Position numbers and translations under genes: made by a program. The notes beneath the pieces were generated by a model. The model was not told where the DNA came from. It ran no database searches and worked only from the letters and a program-made list of their open reading frames with translations. From Sphagnum magellanicum (Eukaryota; Streptophyta; Sphagnopsida; Sphagnales; Sphagnaceae), in the NCBI GenBank assembly GCA_021904315.1, contig CM038914.1:3224001-3288000 (forward strand): 64,000 nt of DNA, in the 5' to 3' direction. Shown one piece after another: positions 13,049-62,610 of this stretch; within the stretch, counting starts at the first letter, position 1; the number at the start of each line of letters is the position of its first letter.

Positions 13049-13670
13049 AAACAAATAAACAAAATTTTGTTGAAACAAAGAAATGAACCAAACAAATCAT
13101 GTCTTGATCCATGCTTTCGAAATAAGAGTGACTTCACTTAAAAACCTCTCATTTTAAAAATTAAAAGCCAAAAAAAAAAGAAAAACAGTTATATAGGAAG
13201 CCTCGTAATTCAAGTCTTAGAAGGAAACCAACAACTTAAAGTTAGAAAAACAACTTTCACATTTCTCATTCCTTTTGAATTCTTTGAAGCTAGGCACAAG
13301 TATGGTAATAGTTCATATAAGCCTAGGGATCAACTAAAAGTTATCACCATGTGCCACAACAAATAAACAAAATTTTGTTGAAACAAAGAAATGAACCAAA
13401 CAAATCATGTCTTGATCCATGCTTTCTAAATACGAGTGACTTCACTTAAAAACTTCTCATTTTAAAAATTAAAAGCCAAAAAAAAAAAAAAAAAAAAACA
13501 GTTATATAGGAAGCCTCGTAATTCAAGTCTTAGAAGGAAACCAACAACTTAAAGTTAGAAAAACAACTTTCACATTTCTCATTCCTTTTGAATTCTTTGA
13601 AGCTAGGCACAAGTATGGTAATAGTTCATATAAGCCTAGGGATCAACTAAAAGTTATCACCATGTGCCAC
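13049..13670. repeat. Tandem duplication, 2 x ~308 bp
   Basis: 13049-13357 and 13358-13670 are two direct adjacent copies, each running from AAATAAACAAAATTTTG to CACCATGTGCCAC. They differ at only a few positions (for example CTTTCGAAATAAG versus CTTTCTAAATACG) plus the length of an internal A run, so the duplication is recent. No coding content. Confidence 0.92.
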
Positions 13671-14100
13671 ATGCCCTTGCAAATTTCAAATTTGCATTGA
13701 TGCTTAAAACCTAGTTGTAACTTCATTTGCAACAACTATATATTTGAACCTTAATTGCACATTAGTTGAAATTAATCATGAATCAATGAATGGGTAGATG
13801 AATGATTTGGTAATATGTACATGCACTTTGCACATTGACATGCTACAAATTTGGCATTTTCATATAGTCTATGTCCTTGCCCCATGGGATTTGAAGTTGC
13901 ATGTTCCAAGTTATTTGCATCTAGCTTGGCATAAAGTTAGACAATGTTGAGTAAAACCTTCCACATGGCAAGTGGCATGTCAAATTGGTGACTCATTTAC
14001 AAATGTCATAAAATTGCTTAATTTTTTAATGTGGAAATAATATTTTTAAATGCATGTATTTTTGCCATAAAGTTGCAAACTAGTTGGATGATCAATGAAA

Positions 14101-26691: not shown

Positions 26692-29600
26692 CTAATTTGT
26701 GTCCATGCAATTCAAGGAATTCAAGACAGAAAGTTCAGAAGATCCACTGTACTTTAGAAGGGGTGTCTCCAAGGCTCGGAACATCGGTATAGTCGGTCCT
26801 ATTGAGAGAGCTTTTTGCCTCCGCTCCACATTTTGGCCCCATGTTACGAAGAAGAGGCCAGAAAGAATCAAAGTTGTGCCAATCACACTGCCGAACAACC
26901 CCCAACAAAGCATGGTCCATAAAAGAGTGAAACATCAGAGCAAAGAAATTATTGTAGGATCAAAGCTATGTATAAGTCCTCCCTATGCACAATTGTCTAC
27001 CACAAGTAGTATCAAGAGATAAATTATCATATATCAAAGTTGAAGGAATTACCAGCCTAGAAAAAGAGATTCACCAAGAATGAAGGTCCCGAAAATTGAT
27101 GCCAGTATAGGCATCACTGGGGCATATGCTGCCACAAAAATTGGTCCTTGATTATGAATAGACCAGCATTTCAGCACATTGTTCATGCCTGATATTATCA
27201 AGCCCTGCAATTCCCTTCCAGATTTTCAGTTAGGAAAATTCTGCCAAAGTGTGTGTGTGAAAGACAACTCTGTAGTTAAAACATTTCAACCACATACAGT
27301 CTCATATCAGCTTTAGGCCACCCATTTGTTACTGAAGAATTCTATTAGTTTCCATTAACCCAACAATCATTGGAACTATGAAACAAGAAGCAAATTAGCT
27401 GGATCATTCTATCAGCCAAAATGGAAACATGGTAATCAACTCTAGATTTGGGAAACACAAAGTAGCAAACATTGGATAATGGTTTGGAAAGGGAGATACT
27501 CCATAAGCAGCAGCCAGAAACTCTGATACATGATGGAAACCCCATTCTGATTGTTCTTGGACTGTGTAATAACATATAATAACCATCAATAGGAACCCTG
27601 TAAATGTCATCCCTGCTATCACAGTTATTGGTGCTGGAAATCTAGCCATTATTGCACTCTGCCATGATCACAATTTCTCATCAGAGGCAACAATTTTGCC
27701 TGTGTGCATTAGAAGAAAACCAAGGAGGCCACTTACAACTTTCTGTGCATTACTAATACTTTGCTCATGTAATGCTCATTTGGTGTCCAGGCACCCACTC
27801 TTGATGCAAAGATGATATATAGACTCAGAGTTACACTAGTGCAATTTGGCCCTAAGATGTGACTTCCACTTTCATGCTAAAAAAAATTGGGCCATATGAC
27901 TTTATTGTCAGAATTCATGTCCCAACGTCGGACCTAACATGACCACTTTAGTGTGCAGAAAATCACCATATGTCCTCTTGCTCATTTGAATTAAAACCCT
28001 AATTCTGCTGAAAATCATTAAATTTTTTTATTCAAATGCTGTAAAACAGTGGTGTCCTTCCTAATGTAGATAATTCTTCATCTAACAATCACAAAAAACA
28101 TTTACCTTTAAGTTAGTCTCGATGCCAATAGTGAGAGACAGAAGGATGAGACAAAGACCTCCAAGGGTCCATTTATCAATACCCCACCCTTCAAGCCCCA
28201 TCAGGTGGTCTCCCATAAGAAGTTTACTTGGTAACATAGAGTTTGGTGGAGTTGTTTTTGATGCCAAACTTTTAAATATGACAGGTCCCTTGTATACAGA
28301 CATGAGGAGTGCCCCCAACACGCAAAATACTATGCCCAAAATTTTGGCCTGCCCATCCCGCTGCCTATATCTAACCTCCTCTGTCCTGAAAAAGTCCAAT
28401 GATCCTGTAAATCCTATGCATTTTGTGGGTTCTCCTAGTAATTCATTGGGACAGCAAAACTCCATGTCAAATATGAAATCTAACATTTGTAGAAAAAAAC
28501 AATTACACACAACTCTGCACAAGATAATTTAACAAGATCCTGGAACAAGAACAATGCCTAGATTATTGGCTATCTCACAATCCAAAACTTCAAGGAAATT
28601 TATAAGTTCTATTTGTACATGGGAAACTTATGTCTGGAACTTGCAAATAACATAGCTTACAAAGGGAGCTGTTGAAGTTACCTGAATGTGGCAGCGATTA
28701 ATAGCACAGAAACTGGAGAACAGTTTAGCATGGCTGATGCAAAGAAAGTGCTTGTGTTTTCTAGACCAACCAAAAACAACACTTGCTCCAAAAAACCCCT
28801 GACCCCCAAAATTTGTTGCAACAAGATTTACAATCCTCATATTAGGGTGTAGCCTGTTTCAAGGACCCAGACTGTCCAGAGGGCAGAATTAGATTCACAT
28901 TCAGAAGAGCAGAAAAATTTGGAGTCTCATATGCTTTGCACCTACCCTAAAACCTGAACTTGAATTTATGCTCAAAATATTTCATGTAGGGTACACAACA
29001 GTGACCCAGAATGATCTAACGCAAAAAAACCATGAATGCTCACAATCTGAGTTTCAGCTGGGCCTTAAAGATACACAACCCCAACTTTACTAGCTCCTTA
29101 CAACTCAGAAAATTTAGATGTAACAAAGAACCAGTGTGTGGCAATTTTCACTTGTAATCAGAAACCAAAAACCAGATAATCAGCTACAATGATAACTGTC
29201 CTATTTTCTTTGGTATGATATTATGCAATGAGGCAGATGTTGAGCACTGCATTGCATATGGTGCTTGGAATCTGCAATTCATATTTAACTTAAGACCATG
29301 AAGAAAGAGACACTTGCACAAAATTGGCTGTGCTAGGAAGAAGAATAAATATTGCTCGCAAATAATCCCAATGTGAAAGCACAAGACTTGAGAGGAGGAC
29401 CGGGATTCTAACATGTTGATCACACTTACCCAAAAACTCCTAAGATAAGGATTAAGCCCAGGACAAGGACTGAACATCTGGGCCGCAATTTCCTGCACAC
29501 GTAACCCGCATCAGAAACAAAGATTTCCGAAAGAGCTCAGCATCGCCTACACAAATAAATTAGTTTCCTCCCAGAATTGGGAAGTGGGGAAGTAGGGCTT

Positions 29601-29972
29601 CGTTTCATCGTTGCATTAGACGAGTGATCCGTCAGCTCAGAAGCATGATCTCACACATAGACCTTTTCCCAAGCTGAGAACTGGAATGGTTATTAACAAG
29701 TGCAGCAGGTTTGCAAGAAGCTGAAATTGCGTGCTCCTCGGGGCGTCAAGTCTTGCTTACATCTCAGCGAAGAACGCCAAGGGCGCGAGAATGCAAAAAG
29801 CAATTCCGTCCCTGTAGGCGCAGAAAACGAGGACGTTGACGCCTGCATTGAGTGCGGCCTTGGAGAGCACGAGATAACCGACGGCACTGAACGACACTGC
29901 CAACATAACAGCGTGTGCCTTGGGTGCGGGAACCCGCTGCTGCTGCGGCTGCTGCTCTTCTCGAATTGCCAT
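26692..29972 (-). CDS. WAT1-related EamA transporter, copy A
   Basis: Seven exons on the minus strand: 29972-29761, 29492-29430, 28798-28682, 28385-28106, 27658-27500, 27204-27053, 26887-26692. All introns are GT-AG and the frame closes exactly (1179 nt, 392 residues), usual for plant WAT1-related (UMAMIT/nodulin-21) proteins. Exon 1 gives SKAALNAGVNVLVFCAYRDG and FFAEM, exon 2 a hydrophobic helix, exon 3 LVGLENTSTFFASAM, exon 4 RQRDGQAKILG and MSVYKGP, exon 5 ARFPAPITVIAG, exon 6 NQGPIFVAAYAPV and FILGESLFLG, exon 7 VIGTTLILSGLFFVTWG. These are the landmarks of the two EamA repeats of a ten-helix membrane protein. Family members export amino acids or auxin from cells or vacuoles; the substrate here is unknown. 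The start is the first Met of exon 1, matching the paralogue. No broken site was found. Confidence 0.93.
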
Positions 29973-30011
29973 CTCGACTCTCTACACAAAGAGAGCACTA
30001 CCGGTGTGTTA

Positions 30012-30084
30012 AAAACTGGGAATTATGAATGAAGTGCAAGTGCTAAAACAAATGCAAAAGCTCTTGCACTTCATTCCCAGTTTT
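30012..30084. promoter_or_regulatory. Palindrome 40 bp upstream of WAT1 copy A start
   Basis: AAAACTGGGAAT plus GAAGTGCAAG (30012-30023 and 30031-30040, separated by 7 unpaired bases) is matched by the exact reverse complement at 30063-30084. That gives a 22-bp bulged stem with a 22-nt loop. It lies 40-112 bp before the ATG, so it is probably in the 5' leader or core promoter. The inner GAAGTGCAAG/CTTGCACTTC part is kept upstream of copy B. A regulatory role is inference. Confidence 0.55.
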
Positions 30085-30091
30085 AAACACA

Positions 30092-30740
30092 AATTTGCCA
30101 ATCCCTTTCTCAAGACGACTACTACTTACTATGGATCCATGATGATGGAGAGTAGAGAGAGAAGACTAGTGGGTGGTATGTACCTTCCAAACATGAGTAT
30201 GGGGTCTCCTTCCTACCCAGAGAAGAAGACTAGTACCATAGTACCTAGGCTGGGTCTACAGCAAATTGCCTAACATATAACTTAGTACCTTTTCAGGTTT
30301 GGCAAAAAATATATATATATTTTAAAATGTCGAAATGTTAGAAAATTAAGGTCTTTTCCTGCTGAAATTTTTTAAAATTATTGTTCACTAAAGCCAAATT
30401 TTCATAGCATTTTTGAGTTTTTTTTAAAAATTTAAAAATTGTCTTTAAACACCCTCTAACAAGCTCTGTTTGACATCTTTTATGGGCTGATAATGCAGCC
30501 CTCCAAAGAACTGTGCTTGTTTTGTCACAGGATTTTTTATTTTTATTTTTTTACTTTGTGTATCCAATAAATGTAAAAAATAAACCCAGTTTTTCAATGC
30601 CTGATGTATGCTAGTGATTAGTGCCATATTTCTTGCAAGGGAAGATTTGGAATTAAAACCTGTGTTGCAAAGCACAACATTTGTGCAAAACATTTGATGA
30701 TGAATAACATGCAAATGTAAATGAGGTTTTGTTGAAAAAT
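30092..30740. other. Spacer between WAT1 copy A and the inverted repeat
   Basis: No supported gene. The 82- and 89-codon frames here are random in character. Holds a short TA run near 30311. Confidence 0.45.
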
Positions 30741-30985
30741 TATATTCTGATTATGCCATCATCCAAGGGCCTTATGGTACTCATATTCTGATTATGCCGT
30801 CATCCAAGGGCGTTATGGTACTCATATTCGGATTATGCTGTCATCCAAGGGCCTTATGGTACTCATATTTGGATTATGCCGTCATCCAAGGGCCTTATGG
30901 TACTCATATTCCGATTATGCTGTCATCCAAGGGCCTTATGGTAACTCATATTTGGATTATGCCGTCATCCAAGGGCCTTACCGAG
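30741..30985. repeat. 41-bp tandem repeat, 6 copies
   Basis: Six successive units of about 41 bp, each with ATTATGC, GTCATCCAAGGG and TTATGGTAC, differing at one to three positions. About three inverted copies occur at 32212-32337. The array forms the outer end of the left arm of the large inverted repeat. Confidence 0.9.
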
Positions 30986-32337
30986 TGTAAAGCACTGCTA
31001 GAAATGCAAAAGAGCAGAGACAAGAAGAAGAAGAAGTTACCTTACGTTTTGTACGGACAAACTATTTTTTGAAACATAAGTTTCCTCCTTCAAAACGGAA
31101 GTTGCCTCCTGTGAACTCCAATGTATGTGATGTTTTTAAGGTAGGTATCCTCCAATTACACTAAGAAATTTCTAACCATGCTTTATGCCATGTGCTGGGG
31201 ACTCTGTAGGCTCCTTGCCTTAGGTTTTTGTCCATTATTATGAAGCCTCTTGTCTTCTTGTTTCCGTGGAATAACAAGAGCTGGGTAAGTTGGCATCATT
31301 TTAAGTGGAACCAAATGAAGAACCTTGCAACATAATTCTTCCCAGTTCCAATAATACCTAGGCTCATTAGGAGGAAATTTTTATTTTTATTTTTTTGAAA
31401 TTGTTAAAAACCCTGAAAACAAAATGCATCCATGCCATGCCAAAGATCTCAATCAAACTCTCAATCACAATAACTAGCTTGATCATTTAGTAAGATATCG
31501 AATTGCAAATTGTCATTAGTTTTAGTGCTGAACAGAATTGAACTAAAAAAAAAGTGTGTCGTATAAATCGTAGGACCTTTTTAGGTTCAGCATCTCGCTA
31601 TTGAATAATTATTTTATTTTTAAAAATTGTTTTCAATGTAGAAAAAAAATAAAAATAAATATATATATATATATATATAATAACAATTTGCAATTCGATA
31701 TCTTACTAAATGATCAAGCTAGTTATTGTGATTGAGAGTTTGATTGCGATCTTTAGTATGGCATGGATGCATTTTGTTTTCAGAGTTTTTAACAATTTCA
31801 AAAAAAAAATTAAAATTGCCTCCTAATGAGCCTAGGTATTATTGGAACTGGGAAGAATTATGTTGCAAGGTTCTTCATTTGGTTCCACTTAAAATGATGC
31901 CAACTTACCCAGCTCTTGTTATTCCACGGAAACAAGAAGACAAGAGGCTTCATAATAATGGACAAAAACCTAAGGCAAGGAGCCTACAGAGTCCCCAGCA
32001 CATGGCATAAAGCATGGTTAGAAATTTCTTAGTGTAATTGGAGGATACCTACCTTAAAAACATCACATATATTGGAGTCCACAGGAAGCAACTTCCGTTT
32101 TGAAGGAGGAAACTTATGTTCCAAAAAATAGTTTGTCCGTACAAAACGTAAGGTAACCTTCTTCTTCTTTCTGCCCTTTTGCATTTCTAGCAGTGCTTTA
32201 CACTCGGTAAGGCCCTTGGATGATGGCATAATCAGAATATGAGTACCATAAGGCCCTTGAATGACAGCATAATCCGAATATGAGTACCATAAGGCCCTTG
32301 GATGATGGCATAATCAGAATATGAGTACCATAAGGCC
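30741..32337. mobile_element. 1.6-kb long inverted repeat (foldback-like)
   Basis: The left arm (30741 to about 31517) and right arm (about 31677-32337) are reverse complements around a ~160-bp AT-rich loop that contains a TA microsatellite (31659-31679). I compared about 200 bp of the arms (31181-31380 against the complement around 31800-32020) and saw no difference; the outer part shows a few substitutions, and the terminal tandem arrays differ in copy number (6 versus about 3). There is no transposase. Termini with tandem repeats and near-identical arms resemble foldback elements, or a recent inverted duplication. The right arm has an 88-codon open frame (31744-32010) without a recognised domain, part of which recurs upstream of WAT1 copy B. 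Confidence 0.85.
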
Positions 32338-34220
32338 ATCCCTTAGGCACAAGGGTGCACCTCAAAGCATGGAAGGGCCAAGAGGGCTACCCTTCCCTTA
32401 CCCAAAGCACTGGCTTTCTTTTCTTTAAAAGTCTGTCAGATGTCTCCCGCTCCCCCCCACCCTGTAATCATCAAGAAGAGCAGTTAGCCAAATTTGGCTA
32501 CAGGTCAGAGAGGAAAGTAAAAAAAATACAAATCCTATTGTGTTTTTGTGGCGTGCTGGAGTCTTTTTGGTCTAAATTTGGCGATTTCACAAAATTTTCA
32601 TACAAATTGGGTCATTTTCTCCCAAAAGAATCCTTTGAAGATGTCATGATGGATTTTTTTTTTATCATGAAAAAATGATTGTGACAATCGTGTTCACAAA
32701 GTGTAGGGTAAAGCCTAAGGCCATGGGCTTTACCAAAATTGTGGCCTTTGTGTGGTGGTGCTTCCAAGGGCTTTTACCAAGTAAACACCACATTCATACT
32801 TTTTTATTTGAAAAAAAAGGTGACACCTTATGATTTTCCATGGGTATGATGAGAAAAAATGATGCAAGGCATTTCGAAAAATGGAATGTTCACAATTATA
32901 GTTGTTTCATTTTCCAAAATGCCTCATGAGATTTTATACTTGACAATGTGCTCTCAAACTACATTAGAGAAATCCAAGCAAGTCTTTACGGATAAAAAAT
33001 ACTTTGAAATATAAGGAAATGCTAGAAAGAAGTTCAAAAGGATGTGTTACACTATACAAAGTCAAATAAATATTCCAACTTGTAAGAGAGTCCTTGAAAT
33101 AAATATCCTTCTTAACAATGGTTATCAAATAACAAAAGGGAACAAATCTAATCCTTTTAACTTGGCCTTTTTTCAAATTTTGAATTTTGATTTGATTTGA
33201 AAATTTCATTATTGTCTCATATGGAATCGAATTTGCAAACCATCTATGTCATTGGACTCCCGGAGTGAAGCACAATGTTGATTTTGAATTAAAAGTTCTT
33301 GGAGGTTGTTCATAGATGCAAGGTGTGAGCAACAGAGGTACATGTGCGACATGTCTTGATAACCAAGCTCTTGTGTGATATCAACTAGAAGAGGCATTTG
33401 AGATTCATAGATTATACTTTCTTCATGTTCAAACTAGGAGTAGGTGCATGGCTCACAACCCAACTAGTTGTCCTCATGTTTTGCCTATGATCAACAATAT
33501 TTTCCATCGCTCTTCAAATCTAACTAGAGTTCCTTCGTCTATTAGTGATAGACTTTCCTCATTGCATGAGTACACAAAACCAATTGATTCATTGGGCATC
33601 CACATTTTGAGATGTGACTTGGCTATGAATGTATGGAGACACATGATGCAATGAGAGATGTTATTACACCCATTGCTTAAGAAGTTGATTTTCAAATGGA
33701 TGGGAACAACTTCAGATGTTGCGTTCATTTACACAACGATCTTTTCATCAACGAGTGGACATATATCCAAAGATACTAGTTGCACCCTAGTCAAGGTCAT
33801 CATCACAAATCCCGCACATGTTAAGCTTTTACCTTAGACAAATTTGGTATCAAAGTTTGTTGTTTTAGAAATAACCCAAATAAAAGAAATGAACTATAAA
33901 AATCAACACCCAAGGGACCAATTCATGCCTTTAATAATTTTTTGTTCTTGATTGTTTACACAAACAAGTTGATGGTTTTTTTAAAGCTCGTATGAACAAT
34001 ATATTGGGATGAGAGGCCCAAAAGATTCGTCTCTTTTGGCCCTAACAACCTATGATATGAGCTTACAAAATATGTAAGCCACTTCTATCCAAAGTTGAGT
34101 TGTGGTGTTATCACATCTCAACTCCTTCCATTTGTCAAGGAACCCCCACCCAACCTCACATTCAACTTATTTGTAATTAAAGGTTTATGAGTACTTATGT
34201 TCTCAATGAGTGTTGTGGTT
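32338..34220. other. Intergenic, nothing recognised
   Basis: Frames of up to 107 codons exist on both strands but show no motif or homologous neighbour. No repeat of note. Confidence 0.4.
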
Positions 34221-39796: not shown

Positions 39797-39898
39797 GTGT
39801 GTAGTCCATCTCTAAATCTGTAGAGAATTTTTTTCAAGTTTGTAACCTTGTGCCACATGTTGCTTGTGTATGTAATCCATGTCTATTTCTGCAGAAAA
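39797..39898. repeat. ~71-bp minisatellite, left part
   Basis: About one and a half units of the same minisatellite found at 47288-47645: GTAGTCCAT, TCTAAATCTGTAGAGAA, TGTAACCTTG, ATGTTGCTTGTGT, then TTCTGCAGAAAA. It abuts the 3' end of the LINE. Confidence 0.75.
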
Positions 39899-40999: not shown

Positions 41000-42970
41000 A
41001 GATCCGTGTGAAAGGGGCAAGATGATCCGTTGCCTTGTTGTTGATCCAGTCCCTAATTTTGAAGTCATTGGAAAATGCAGCTGGGTTCCAAAGGATGTTA
41101 GAGATGATGATGTCCCTGCTTGTTCATTAATGACGTGGGAGCTCATTCCAAGTGCTAGGAGGCTCTTCCATTCCTTGTTCTCCTGGTCCCATAAATCCCT
41201 TATTCTTGTGCATCCAGCCTTAGCAATGGTTCGCCTTTCACTGAGTCCACTTACCCTTAAAGGTCGACCGGCATAATTAGTGACTAAGGGGTTGCTGAAG
41301 ATTGGTTGTCTGAGGATTTTTGCTTGCGATGTGGGTTCAATTTTTGCAAAACTTGTTTTCACATTCAATCAGGATCCGAGGATGCTTTTCCAAAATGAAC
41401 AGGTCGTTATCTAGAGTTTGGGGGCAATGAATAGCCAGTTGATGTCTTTATTCCTTGGGCCTTGCCCATGGACCGAGAATTGAACTTGATCCGCGAGATG
41501 TTTCAGTATCTCCTTCCAAAGTTCACAACCGGGGGATAGTCCTCTCACTAGCAACTTGGCAAAAAGGGCTTCTAATTGAGCTTTGGGGTCGATAATTCCT
41601 AGGCCCCCACTTGAAGGGGGAAACGTGAGGGAATCCCATTTTACTTTTGCTCAGGTGCTAATTGCTTTTCCTCCCCAAATGAAGTTCCAAACCACCCCCC
41701 TATTTTAATTGCACATTCTAGGATTAGGGTTCTAGCAAGCTGCCATGTACCACATGGAGGAAAGTAAAACCTAATTGGCTATGAGTATTCTACCTATGAG
41801 GAAAAGGTTATAGTTTCCCCATGATATCATTTTGACCTTTAATGGGATCATAAGTTTATCCAAGTTTGCCTTTGTGGGGAGCCGAAATCTAACTTGGATG
41901 CCTAGGTAGTGAACCCCTTCGCTCTCAGGGACCCATTTCAACCCTACCTCTTGACCCCACTCCTAGGCTTGTTTCTCTTTGTTGGCCCAAATGGTGGCAG
42001 TCTTCCCCTAATTGATTTTCGCCCCTAATGTGAGACAAAAGAGATCCAGTATTGACCGCATTCTATCCATGTTGCTTTTGGTTCCCTTGAGATAGAGAAT
42101 GGTATCATTAGCAAATGTTTGGTCCCGAACACAACTTCCTTTGGGTAGGGTCAGCCCCTCCACATTATATTTAGTATCGTCTAGCATATGTCCAAGGAGA
42201 TCTGCTGCCAATATAAATAGGTATGGAGCCAACGGGCAACCCTATCTCATCGATTTGGATAACTTGAAATCTTCTCCAAATTCTCCATTAACCTTGACCG
42301 ATGATGAAGCTAGCCAATATAATGAGGAAACCCACTTAATCCATTTGGGGCTAAACCCTAATTTGGACAAAGTTGGAAAAAGAAAGCCCCACTTTATTCT
42401 ATCAAAGGTTTTTTCAAAGTCGAAAAGAAGCAAGACTAGGTCCTGCTCACTCTCTACTGCCCACTCGAGCAATTCCTGGGCTAAAAAAATATTATCCAAA
42501 ATGCTCCTCCTCATCATAAAGCCGATTTGGTTGGGTCTGATCACAAATGGTAGGTGTACCTGCATCTTTCGAGTTAAGATTGTAGCAAATATTTTGCAAA
42601 TACTTCCAAGGAGAGTGATGGGTCTCCAATTCCCTAACTTGGAGTGGTCTCCAGATTTCGAGATCAAGGTGATCATCCCTTTGTTGATGAAGTCCGAGAT
42701 TAGTCCCAATGAAAGCATTGCTCAAAAGGCTAGGAGAAGTGAGGGGGCAATTTTGTCCACATTTTCCTGAAAGAAATTTGTTGATAAATCGTTATGGCCT
42801 AGTGCTTTGCCATTAGGCAAGGAGGTGATGGCTTCCACCACCTCTTCCAAGGTCAACTCCTGGGTCATTTTAGCATTCATATCCTTTGTGACTTGAGAGG
42901 GTACACTCTCCCAACACTTCCTTTGGGCTTCTGTAATGTTGGGGGAGTGGGGTTCAGATGCGTACATATT
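41000..42970 (-). pseudogene. LINE ORF2 reverse transcriptase remnant
   Basis: Segments in order: LPNGKALGHNDLSTNFF (family: NGKAPGPDG...FF), LISKSGDHSKLGNWRPITLL, RPNQIGFMMRRSILDNIFLA, LLLFDFEKTFDRIKW (motif A with its Asp kept) and TFANDTILYLKG. The last is the catalytic FADD box with the first Asp changed to Asn (AAT, complement of 42107-42109). Stop codons split it, one near 42233. Dead by several criteria. Confidence 0.88.
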
Positions 42971-46895: not shown

Positions 46896-47287
46896 AGGTC
46901 AAATAACATAATTGTTTTGCGCCAACAAACTAGTAGACCGAGCAACAAGCGCAGGACCTTTGAGACTGAGCGATGGAGAGAGAACTAAGGCGCCGCTGCC
47001 GCCGTTAGGGATTAGGAGTTTGTTTCGCAGCAAATTGCTACCTTGGCCGTCGGATGCAAGTGTACCACGGTTGGATATGTTCCACGTGGTGCGTTCTCAC
47101 TTCATTCGTTTGTTGACCGGAGAGGAATTACTTACTGTCGCTATTTCTCCCGGTTGTTTCGAGACCCGTGAGTGCTTCACGAGTTTCAACATGAACGCGC
47201 TCTGGCCAGCTTTCCGGATCCGACCAGCCACCAAAATATGCTCATTCAACCGCGAGATCTGCTGCGCTTCTAAATCTGATCGTCCAC

Positions 47288-47645
47288 TTCTGCAGAGAAA
47301 TTTGTTGAGTCTGCAACCTTGTGCAGTATGTTATTTGTGTCTGTAGTCCATGTCCAAATTTGCAGAGAAATTTGTTGAGTCTGCAACCTTGCGTCATATG
47401 TTATTTGTGTCTGTAGTCCATGTCCAAATCTGCAGAGAGGTTTGTTGAGTCTGTGACCTTGCACCATATGTTACTTGTATGTAAAATCCATGTCCAAATC
47501 TGCAGACAAAGTTGTAGAGTCTGCAACCTTGTGGTGTATGTTACTTGTGTCTGTGTATTCCATGTCCACATCTGGAGAGAAACTTGTTGGGATCTGTAAC
47601 CTTGCGCAGCATGTTGCTTTGTGTGCACCTCCTGGATTGAAACCA
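47288..47645. repeat. ~70-bp minisatellite, right part (5 copies)
   Basis: Units start TGCAGAG at about 47291, 47361, 47431, 47501 and 47573 (as TGGAGAG in the last), a period of 70-72 bp. Each carries TTTGTTGAGTCTGCAACCTTG-like, ATGTTA.TTGT and CCATGTCCA. It continues the array seen at 39797-39898 on the other side of the LINE. Confidence 0.88.
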
Positions 47646-50329: not shown

Positions 50330-50512
50330 CTGATTGACTAGATAGTGTGATTGGTCGAGCTGGGCTGCTATTACCTAGGAGTCTCCCACCTATTTGCAGT
50401 CCCGGTTTCAGTTTAATGGGTGTGGTTGGAAAAAGGTACTTATTAAATAACTGAAACTTGGATGTGAGATATACTTTTCCAGAGTCACAGCACTGGAAAT
50501 GCTCTTACAGTG
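50330..50512. repeat. Inverted partial copy of the 48.7-kb MITE
   Basis: The reverse complement of this stretch follows 48658-48810: GAGCATTTCCAGTGCT-like end, TCTCACATCC, AAACTGAAACCGGGACTGCA, then CAATCA. It lies about 500 bp before the MOSC start codon, so it may form part of that gene's promoter region. Confidence 0.6.
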
Positions 50513-50959
50513 CCAGACTCATCAGGATCTCTTTTCTTCTTCATGCGGCTGTCGCATCCATCTACACAGCCAACAGTCGAGAATTTCTTCTTCCAACGAA
50601 AATTTCACGGGAAGCTGCCGCACCTTGCGCACCAAGCAATTTCAAGCAGGTCCCACCAAACTCTCTCACTCACAGCAGCGCCGGCAAGAGGAGCAGCAGC
50701 TCCTTCCTCCTGTTGTAGCGAGAGACATGCAGAGGAAGATAAAAAGCTATGTCATGTACAAGGACAAGGGAGGTACAAGAGGAGGAGGGACCAGCCGGGG
50801 CCCACCCACCCATCGGTTCATTCTCCTGCACACAGTCCAAAAGCTGAACTCCTGCCCCTTTCGCAGGACATCGTCTGCTTCTTCTTCTTCTCCTTCTTTG
50901 TTGTTTGTCTTTCTCCTGCTGCTGGGAAGGGAAAGGAAGGAGAATTGGAGCTGTTGGGT

Positions 50960-50990
50960 GAAGAAGAAGAAGAAGAAGAAGAAGAAGAAG
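50960..50990 (+). repeat. GAA microsatellite before the MOSC start
   Basis: About ten GAA units, 20 bp upstream of the chosen ATG at 51011. It encodes the Glu run of the long upstream open frame but probably lies in the 5' leader. Confidence 0.9.
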
Positions 50991-51010
50991 ACGGAAGGGA
51001 GCAACCAAAG

Positions 51011-52932
51011 ATGGGACCTTACAGTGTGGCGGAGGTGATAGTGTATCCCGTGAAGGCATGTCGAGGTATATCTGTCTCTAGTGCAGCCATCTCTACAACA
51101 GGTAACAACAACAACTACAGATGTTTCCATAGCCCAAAAAAACAATCCTTTTTTCAACCATACTGCAAACTGTTCTCGACCATCCTCGACCACCATTGAC
51201 CGCAAGCAATTGTTTGTTGTTGTTGGAGAATGATTTTGCGTTGGCTTTTGTTGTGGGTGGTGTTTTTGTTTTTGGGGGTCAGGTTTCTTGTATGATCGAG
51301 AATGGATGGTAGTCAATGCTGACAATGGTCGTCTGATTGCCATGGCAAGAGCTCCAAAGCTTGCATTAGTGCAACCATCTCTTCCTGCAGCTGCATTCAA
51401 AGGAGATCTGTTGCCAGATGATGCTGTATTGGGTATGTCATCAAACTCTTCTACCACACTGTTATGGCCAGCAGCAGCGACCTCTCAAGTACCCCAGAGA
51501 CACAGAGACAGAGACAGAAACAGAGAAGTTTGTGTGTGATTTTGTGGGTCCCTCCAACATCCATTTGCTTTGGTTTTCTGCAATGATTTTGTAGAAGCCT
51601 CTTTGTTGCACACTCTGATTGATACATCAATCTTTGTGTGGGGTTTTTTTTTGTTCTGTTTTGTTTTTTGAGAATCCTAATTTGCTTGAAACTTTGTGTT
51701 CTGGCAGAGATCAATGCTCCAGGTATGCTTCCATTGAAGGTGCCATTGAAGCGGAGTTCCATGACAGGGAAAGCAAAGGAGGGAAATCGTGGAAGCATAG
51801 TGGATGTGGTGGTATTTTCTTGGTCAGGACAAGGAGTTGATGAAGGCCCAGATGCAGCAACTTGGTGGTCCACTTACTTGGGTTGCAATGCACGTCTTGT
51901 TCGTTTTGATTCTGGTACCAAAACATGCCCTCTTTTTTTCTTTTTTTCTATCTTTTTCTCTATGAAAACAAAGCAAAATGTCCACTGTCTGTAATGACTT
52001 TGTGGGCAGCAGCCTAACATGGTCTTCATCATTCTGAGATGTGATCTAGTAATGAATTGTTTGTTGTTGTTTCTACGACTAAATTTGAGCATTTCATGCA
52101 TGTATCTGTGATGCCTCTTCTTCAGTCATGCACAATCAAAGCCTTTTGAAGCTGGTGTTTTTCTTGTTTGCATACTCCTCAAAGGAATTTTTTTTGGAAA
52201 CAATTTACACCAAGGAGAGAGTGCCTTTTGCTTTGTGGGTATGTAATGTGTGCAGCGGCTTTGAGGGAAGATCGGCAAGCTGAACTTGCACCTAATGGTT
52301 ACACCACCGGATTTGCAAATACAGGCCAGTTTTTGTGTATATCTGAGGTTGGTTCACATCCACATTCTTTTGAGTGTGAATACCTACCTCATAGGTAGGA
52401 AATTGAATTGAATCTGCAGATAATAACACTATCAAGTCTGGACTCTCTTTGGCTACTCAGGTGGGGCTACCACTACTACCTACGTACATTAAGGTCTCGA
52501 AGATTGGTTGAAGATGAAGAAATTCTGTAAATTATTGGCTTCTAATTAGGGAAGATTGGTTGCAGCAGAATTTGCAATTTATAATACCTCCTAATTAGGG
52601 GAAGATCATGGGTTGCAGAAATTCTTACCTCACAAATTGCATCCTTGTGGCAGGCATCACTGGAAGAAGTGAACACACATTTTCCCAATGCACCACTGGC
52701 AATGAACCGCTTTCGTCCCAAGTGAGTCCACCTCTTATCCATTGGTCTATGTGAAGTTGCTGATGCATTCCATTTGTTCTGTCAAAAAACTTTTTGCGTT
52801 CAGATAGAGGTGGGGGATTAGAGAAACTGATCATTCTGCTATAACCCATTTAGCAACGTGATCAAATCCTCAGTTGATGATTTTTTTGGTGTTATGACTC
52901 AGAATGGGTATTGAATTATTTCTTTGAAAAAT

Positions 52933-62270: not shown

Positions 62271-62318
62271 CTCGACTCTCTAGAGAAAGCCCTAGTGTGT
62301 TAAAAACTTGGGATTAAT

Positions 62319-62362
62319 GAAGTGCAAGCGCTAAAGAAACGTGCAGCCAGCTCTTGCACTTC
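62319..62362. promoter_or_regulatory. Conserved inverted repeat upstream of WAT1 copy B
   Basis: GAAGTGCAAG (62319-62328) and its exact complement CTTGCACTTC (62353-62362), with AGCGCT/AGCTCT partly extending the stem. It lies 49-92 bp before the ATG, the same place as the longer palindrome of copy A. The surrounding GTGTGTTAAAAAC and AACACAAATT words are also shared. Confidence 0.5.
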
Positions 62363-62512
62363 AACGAGTTCATATTCATATCCGGTCTAACACAAATTCC
62401 CAAATCTCTTTGTCAAGATTATAATGGACGCACGATTATGGGAAAAGAGAGAGAACTGTCGCCTATTCCCCGTAAAAAGGAGTAAAATAAGGCACTATGG
62501 AAGGAACGACGC

Positions 62513-62610
62513 CATAGGGTTCTCTCCATTTGGTCCCACGTAAAATGATGAAAACCTTCGGAACTTTATTCCAAGGAAACATGAATGAAAGGCAAGACCA
62601 ATTTTGGTGA
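62513..62610 (+). repeat. Single partial copy of the inverted-repeat arm
   Basis: GGTTCTC..CATTTGGTCCCACGTAAAATGATG and GTTCCAAGGAAACA-like words follow the right arm of the 30.7-kb inverted repeat near 31868-31960. In both, a frame reads HLVP[LR]KMM. Identity is moderate over about 90 bp, so this copy is much older than the split between the two arms. Confidence 0.55.

What the first reader, a model, noticed from the sequence alone, without database searches (positions are those of the whole stretch)
30741..32337. 1.6-kb inverted repeat with near-identical arms upstream of a transporter gene
The arms span about 650-780 bp around a 160-bp loop. Over the ~200 bp I compared base by base there was no difference, while the outer ends carry 41-bp tandem repeats in unequal number (6 versus about 3). 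A transcript through it would fold into a long double-stranded RNA of the kind that feeds plant small-RNA production. It lies about 0.8 kb upstream of WAT1 copy A and is absent in this form from copy B, so it could distinguish expression of the two. It may be a foldback element or a recent inverted duplication.
Basis: partly seen in the sequence, partly recalled or inferred. Interest (0 to 1): 0.75.

Follow-up and report, generated by a model that had tools for sequence, protein, structure and literature searches.

The report
Inverted duplication in mobile-element debris
Upstream of a probable transporter gene, a stretch of old mobile-element debris was copied back-to-front beside itself, apparently during repair of a chromosome break, leaving a long hairpin-capable repeat that looks like an ordinary genomic accident and not a special element.

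Summary
The inverted repeat is real: left arm 30742-31518, loop 31519-31677, right arm 31678-32337; aligned arms 95.7% identical. It is not a foldback transposon. The search of the 439-Mb assembly returned the full structure once. Each arm is a patchwork: T2, a nearly unique middle, T3 plus a 41-bp array. The loop holds the right end of another element, T1 (~550 bp), whose left part lies outside the repeat (30283-30741). Turning the loop back improves the alignment with 18 of 18 other T1 copies; the present order with 0 of 18. So the ancestral order was T1-T2-middle-T3-array, the right arm is original, and left arm plus loop are an inverted copy placed at a (TA)n in T1, with about 4 bp of microhomology at each joint. 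Break repair with template switching fits; that step is inferred. A 251-base run without mismatches hints at later exchange between arms. A third gene copy (C) outside the window shares T1's left part but not the repeat. Transcription and small RNAs could not be tested; exact matches to copy B's upstream DNA are at most 13 nt, so any effect on the transporter genes would be in cis on copy A.

The parts
30742..31518 (-). Left arm: inverted copy (array, T3, middle, T2 in reverse order)
   Evidence: alignment to the right arm; judged the derived arm from T1 and T2 order
31519..31677 (-). Loop: a T2 stretch, the T1 right end (inverted against T1's left part) and a (TA)n
31678..32337 (+). Right arm: judged the original (T2, middle, T3, array)
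   Evidence: orientation from T1 and T2 order
30283..30741 (+). Left part of element T1, outside the repeat
   Evidence: 39 further match rows beyond itself and copy C, 40 of 135 candidates scored; copies aligned
31567..31677 (-). T1 right end plus (TA)n, inverted in the loop
   Evidence: in 17 of 18 copies L030-L047 it follows T1's left part turned round; 18 of 18 in the join test
30742..30980 (-). 41-bp array, 5.8 copies
32208..32337 (+). 41-bp array, 3.2 copies
31352..31553 (-). T2 family stretch in the left arm, running on into the loop
   Evidence: 7 fetched loci; in 6 of 7 the match passes 31518 into the loop
31678..31841 (+). T2 family stretch in the right arm, cut off at the (TA)n
32005..32248 (+). 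T3 family stretch with one 41-bp unit (partner in the left arm 30939-31188)
   Evidence: single-arm matches of 70-78% in 10 fetched loci L008-L017
30242..30273 (+). Weak likeness to a T2 terminus, left of T1
   Evidence: 4 of 7 T2 copies on the expected strand and side, E 0.005-0.67 in the joined query
29760..29972 (-). First exon region of the EamA-family transporter gene, copy A (end of exon not fixed)
62523..62597 (+). Stretch upstream of copy B that resembles the arm middle, in the direction of the right arm
   Evidence: score 71; 200 shuffles mean 37.5, largest 54

Best explanation
A local inverted duplication of non-coding upstream DNA, made by repair of a chromosome break. Ancestral order, reading away from gene copy A: proximal promoter, T1 (both parts together, probably inserted in T2), T2, a nearly unique middle, T3, 41-bp array, flank. 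A break in the (TA)n of T1 was mended by copying 0.8-0.94 kb of the neighbouring right-hand DNA backwards, starting in the array (shared ATAT at 30742) and ending at the (TA)n beside T2 (shared TAAT near 31678). Either the repair also lost about 160 bp on the right, or only the arm was inserted and the loop was later flipped by recombination between the arms; these two cannot be told apart here. Shown: the anatomy, the order before the event, which arm is original. Inferred: the break, the template switch, the exchange between arms. As to function, most likely a neutral rearrangement with no role of its own.
For: T1 test: loop turned back improves alignment in 18 of 18 copies, median gain 56.5; present order 0 of 18; loop as it stands 1 of 18; right arm put directly after T1's left part 8 of 18, median 10. 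Same-order pieces in 17 of 18 copies L030-L047 and in L023 and L024, not in L045 and L025. T2: 6 of 7 copies pass from the left arm into the loop, while the right arm stops at the (TA)n. Mosaic arms of families that occur elsewhere apart. Joints with about 4 shared A+T bases, read by eye. Arms differ by substitutions and array length, unlike an assembly fold. A 251-base run without mismatch, P 0.0056 for an even spread of 12 mismatches, tested after seeing it.
Against: No empty-site or pre-event allele was seen: copy C stops at 30684, 57 bp before the joint, and runs into unrelated DNA. The T2 terminus left of T1 is weak (4 of 7; the other 3 matched only the opposite terminus). 4-bp A+T microhomologies in A+T-rich DNA are weak evidence. 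Putting the right arm directly after T1's left part also gains a little in 8 of 18. The local inverted insertions of the yeast study are mostly 5-34 bp (PMC11724301, abstract), far shorter than this.
Confidence: 0.82

Rival explanations
1. A foldback or Mutator-like transposon with long terminal inverted repeats built of tandem modules, inserted at a (TA)n.
For: Long near-identical arms with tandem modules at the ends; (TA)n at the inner joint; MuTAnT elements of Medicago have module-built foldback ends and insert in (TA)n (PMC4486113, passages).
Against: Full structure returned once; no direct repeat abuts the ends: the only exact 8-bp word shared by the flanks, CAAAGCAC, lies 66 and 65 bp outside them, its left copy inside T1, with no inverted likeness of 12 or more between the flanks and only one A+T 12-base run of overlapping 11-mers; arms end at different points of the 41-bp unit; arms are mosaics of other families; T1 is split across it.
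Confidence: 0.04
2. Two steps: a direct tandem duplication of the T2-T3-array segment, then an inversion of T1's right end with one of the two segments.
For: Gives the same final order and the same joints as seen.
Against: Needs two events and two breaks at the same (TA)n; no tandem intermediate was seen, though none was searched for in other accessions.
Confidence: 0.1
3. The repeat is a working hairpin-RNA locus: it is transcribed and its small RNAs mark copy A's upstream region or silence T3-family copies.
For: Near-perfect stem. Of 13 repeat-family loci tested (2 kb of each), 4 share 21 nt or more exactly with the repeat: L014 44, L013 36, L024 24, L018 22 (a TA run); the other 9 share 13-19 nt. 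Long inverted repeats feed DCL2, DCL3 and DCL4 in Arabidopsis (PMC4687873, passages). Mu killer of maize is a partial inverted duplication proposed to make a hairpin RNA (PMC3440606, abstract).
Against: No expression or small-RNA data exist here; gene copy A is transcribed away from it; 13 nt is the longest exact match to copy B's upstream DNA; no Rfam match in the window.
Confidence: 0.1
4. Assembly artefact: a read folded back on itself.
For: Inverted repeats are a known product of adapter-less reads (recalled).
Against: Arms differ at 20 aligned positions and in array length, and the loop belongs to T1 and T2 in a definite order.
Confidence: 0.03

Closest known systems
Templated inverted insertions at double-strand breaks (yeast: PMC11724301, abstract and outline seen; plant filler DNA: search listing only)
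   Same: Inverted copy of nearby DNA at a joint with microhomology
   Different: The local yeast events are mostly 5-34 bp by the abstract; here about 0.8-0.94 kb, and natural
MuTAnT / FARE foldback-type Mutator-like elements (PMC4486113, passages; the FARE paper itself is not held)
   Same: Long inverted arms with tandem modules; link with (TA)n
   Different: No copies of the whole, no target-site duplication, mosaic arms, foreign element split across it
Arabidopsis endogenous inverted-repeat siRNA loci such as IR71 and IR2039 (PMC4687873, passages)
   Same: Long near-perfect stem if transcribed
   Different: No transcript or small RNA shown here
Mu killer of maize (PMC3440606, abstract and outline)
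   Same: Inverted duplication of transposon-derived DNA
   Different: Mu killer copies a transposase gene and silences it; here non-coding element debris, activity unknown

Membership tests
Foldback / Mutator-like transposon | Multiple dispersed copies of the whole element | tested here: not met
   one full match in the own assembly; parts match separate places; 40 of 122 candidates scored
Foldback / Mutator-like transposon | Target-site duplication (9 bp in the MuTAnT paper) abutting both ends | tested here: not met
   a duplication wholly hidden in (TA)n was not tested
Foldback / Mutator-like transposon | Same terminal sequence at both ends | tested here: not met
   left ends at ATATTCTG, right at the GGCC of a 41-bp unit
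Foldback / Mutator-like transposon | Transposase in an autonomous relative | not tested
   no search for one was made
Inverted duplication by break repair | Arms match neighbouring DNA whose original order can be rebuilt | tested here: met
Inverted duplication by break repair | Microhomology at the joints | tested here: inconclusive
   about 4 A+T bases at each, read by eye; partner sequence inferred
Inverted duplication by break repair | An allele without the event | not testable with these tools
   one assembly only; copy C ends before the joint
Endogenous inverted-repeat siRNA locus | Long near-perfect stem | tested here: met
Endogenous inverted-repeat siRNA locus | Transcript across both arms and 21-24-nt RNAs | not testable with these tools
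   no RNA data

The most novel reading that the evidence does not exclude
A natural, chance-born silencer: the inverted duplication turned T1/T2/T3 debris into a hairpin gene whose small RNAs silence T3-family copies elsewhere (up to 44 nt identical) and mark the upstream region of transporter copy A alone among three copies, so that one break-repair accident separated the regulation of recent paralogues.
Probability: 0.06. Interest if true: 0.55.

Novelty: new member of a known kind. Interest (0 to 1): 0.25.

Why it matters
It shows step by step how a structure that looks like a foldback transposon can arise without one: the nested elements give the order before the event, the original arm and the break site. 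Such repeats are candidate raw material for new hairpin-RNA loci, and this one sits beside one of three paralogous transporter genes, two of them about 96% identical over the compared stretch, which makes a cis effect testable.

Tried and rejected
Foldback/MULE reading: rejected. Copy B as an empty site: no T1, T2 or T3 likeness was found upstream of it in the window; it shares only about 75 bp with the arm. I first took this stretch as ancestral upstream DNA of the gene; a partial match of the same stretch on C5 means it may be a low-copy repeat. The genome search with copy B's stretch found only itself and missed the arm, so that search is not sensitive at this divergence. Copy C as an empty site: it stops 57 bp before the joint. 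Dating: arms 2.26%, or 12 of 279 (4.3%) if the clean run is left out (my arithmetic), against copies A and C 2.88% overall and 3.57% in T1; the order of the two events is not resolved. Rfam: no match at gathering scores; tRNA: none. Protein searches with single exon pieces gave nothing for the transporter, the piece 29693-30022 being in a wrong frame. The superfamily of T1-T3 was not settled. A genome-wide search for further transporter copies by protein did not complete.

Full report
What is there. The window is C8:3224001-3288000 of a 439-Mb assembly in 31 contigs. The inverted repeat stands as described: arms 30742-31518 and 31678-32337, loop 31519-31677. The aligned parts (30850-31518 with 32337-31678) have 640 matches, 20 mismatches and 9 gap columns. 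The 41-bp arrays at the outer ends have 5.8 and 3.2 copies. Of 394 inverted 24-mer seeds in the window, 392 lie in this repeat; none were listed for 20 other loci of the same genome, 180,520 bases.

It is a patchwork. A search of the whole assembly with the repeat returned the full structure once (40 of 122 candidates were scored, so counts of partial copies are lower bounds). Parts match different dispersed families: T3 (32005-32248, partner 30939-31188; 10 fetched loci, L008-L017, each a single-arm match), T2 (31352-31553, partner 31677-31841; 7 fetched loci) and the loop piece (31567-31656). The arm middle, 31189-31360, matches the two arms and one 71-bp place on C5 at 77%.

The key. The DNA left of the repeat, 30283-30741, is the left part of an element of about 550 bp, T1, with 39 further match rows beyond itself and copy C (40 of 135 candidates scored). 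In 17 of 18 fetched copies (L030-L047; L045 missing) T1's left part is followed by the loop sequence turned round. As a control I extended T1's left part in four ways and aligned each with the 18 copies. The loop turned back improved the score by more than 10 in 18 of 18 (median gain 56.5), the present order in 0 of 18 (median 0), the loop as it stands in 1 of 18 (median 2), and the right arm put directly after it in 8 of 18 (median 10). T1 is therefore cut at a (TA)n, and its right end sits inverted in the loop. T2 agrees: in 6 of 7 T2 loci the match passes from the left arm 14-35 bp into the loop, while the right arm breaks off at 31678 against the (TA)n. A weak T2-like end lies left of T1 at 30242-30273 (4 of 7 copies on the expected strand and side, E 0.005-0.67; the other 3 matched only the opposite terminus). 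T1 thus seems to have been inserted into T2.

How it arose. The ancestral order was T1-T2-middle-T3-array in the direction of the right arm. The left arm and loop are the same DNA inverted and placed at the (TA)n of T1. Both joints seem to share about 4 A+T bases with the partner (ATAT at 30742, TAAT near 31678; read by eye, partner sequence inferred). The 251-base run without mismatch (P 0.0056 for an even spread of 12 mismatches over 530 bases, tested after seeing it) suggests that the arms have exchanged sequence. Templated inverted insertions through microhomology are known from yeast (PMC11724301, abstract), though the local kind there is mostly 5-34 bp.

Against a foldback transposon: no second copy of the whole, no target-site duplication abutting the ends (one exact 8-bp word lies 66 and 65 bp outside them, its left copy inside T1), ends at different points of the 41-bp unit, mosaic arms, and T1 split across the repeat. 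MuTAnT elements of Medicago have module-built foldback ends and insert in (TA)n (PMC4486113, passages), which makes the likeness understandable, but the defining features tested are not met.

Surroundings. The gene is an EamA-family transporter (stitched exon pieces, E 2.9e-7, 31.3 bits against a cut-off of 28.2; single pieces 20.3 and 17.8 bits, below it). It is transcribed away from the repeat. A third copy, C, lies about 10 kb beyond the window's right end in the opposite direction (C8:3297511-3298446). It matches A over 29245-30684 at 95.9%, with 41 mismatches in 1426 aligned bases. It shares T1's left part to 30684 and then runs into unrelated DNA. Copy B's upstream DNA has a stretch of about 75 bp like the arm middle, in the direction of the right arm (score 71; 200 shuffles mean 37.5, largest 54). 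This fits common ancestry of the upstream regions, but the C5 match means it may be a low-copy repeat; I do not lean on it.

Function. A transcript would fold into a near-perfect stem, and such stems feed several Dicer-like enzymes in Arabidopsis (PMC4687873, passages). No data here show a transcript. Copy B's upstream DNA shares at most 13 nt exactly with the repeat, the copy A gene 12, the copy B gene fewer than 12, while 4 of 13 tested repeat-family loci share 21 nt or more, the best 44 and 36. A silencing effect, if any, would be in cis on copy A or on T3 copies.

Verdict. Observation confirmed; foldback element not supported; an inverted duplication in nested element DNA, a new member of a known kind. 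Interest 0.25; the novel reading (a chance-born silencer) 0.06.

Noticed in passing
30004-30093, and the same in L029: A second, small hairpin just upstream of transporter copy A: minus-strand fold -42.7 kcal/mol, z -10.06, 0 of 200 shuffles as good; copy B's counterpart (62299-62391) is weaker, z -1.92. Copy C (L029) has the inverted match too.
   Followed up: partly
C8:3297511-3298446 (L029, L049), outside the window: A third, nearly identical transporter copy in the opposite direction; its likeness to copy A ends inside T1 at 30684, 57 bp from the repeat's first joint, so one fragile site may have served both rearrangements.
   Followed up: partly
C14:1680223-1680393 (L051): A further, more distant relative of the transporter gene: exon matches of 80-82% to copies A and B.
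   Followed up: no
32457-32602: A dispersed repeat of about 130 bp in the right flank of the inverted repeat, with dozens of matches of 71-90% in the genome; 40 of 848 candidates scored.
   Followed up: no
42242-42721: Reverse-transcriptase fragment on the minus strand (RVT_1, E 2.5e-14).
   Followed up: no
50468-51199: Reading frame with a MOSC N-terminal domain start (MOSC_N, E 1.8e-5).
   Followed up: no
13050-13671: Tandem duplication of 313 bp, 97% matches.
   Followed up: no
47282-47624: Array of 70-bp units, 4.8 copies, with a lone relative at 39811-39880.
   Followed up: no
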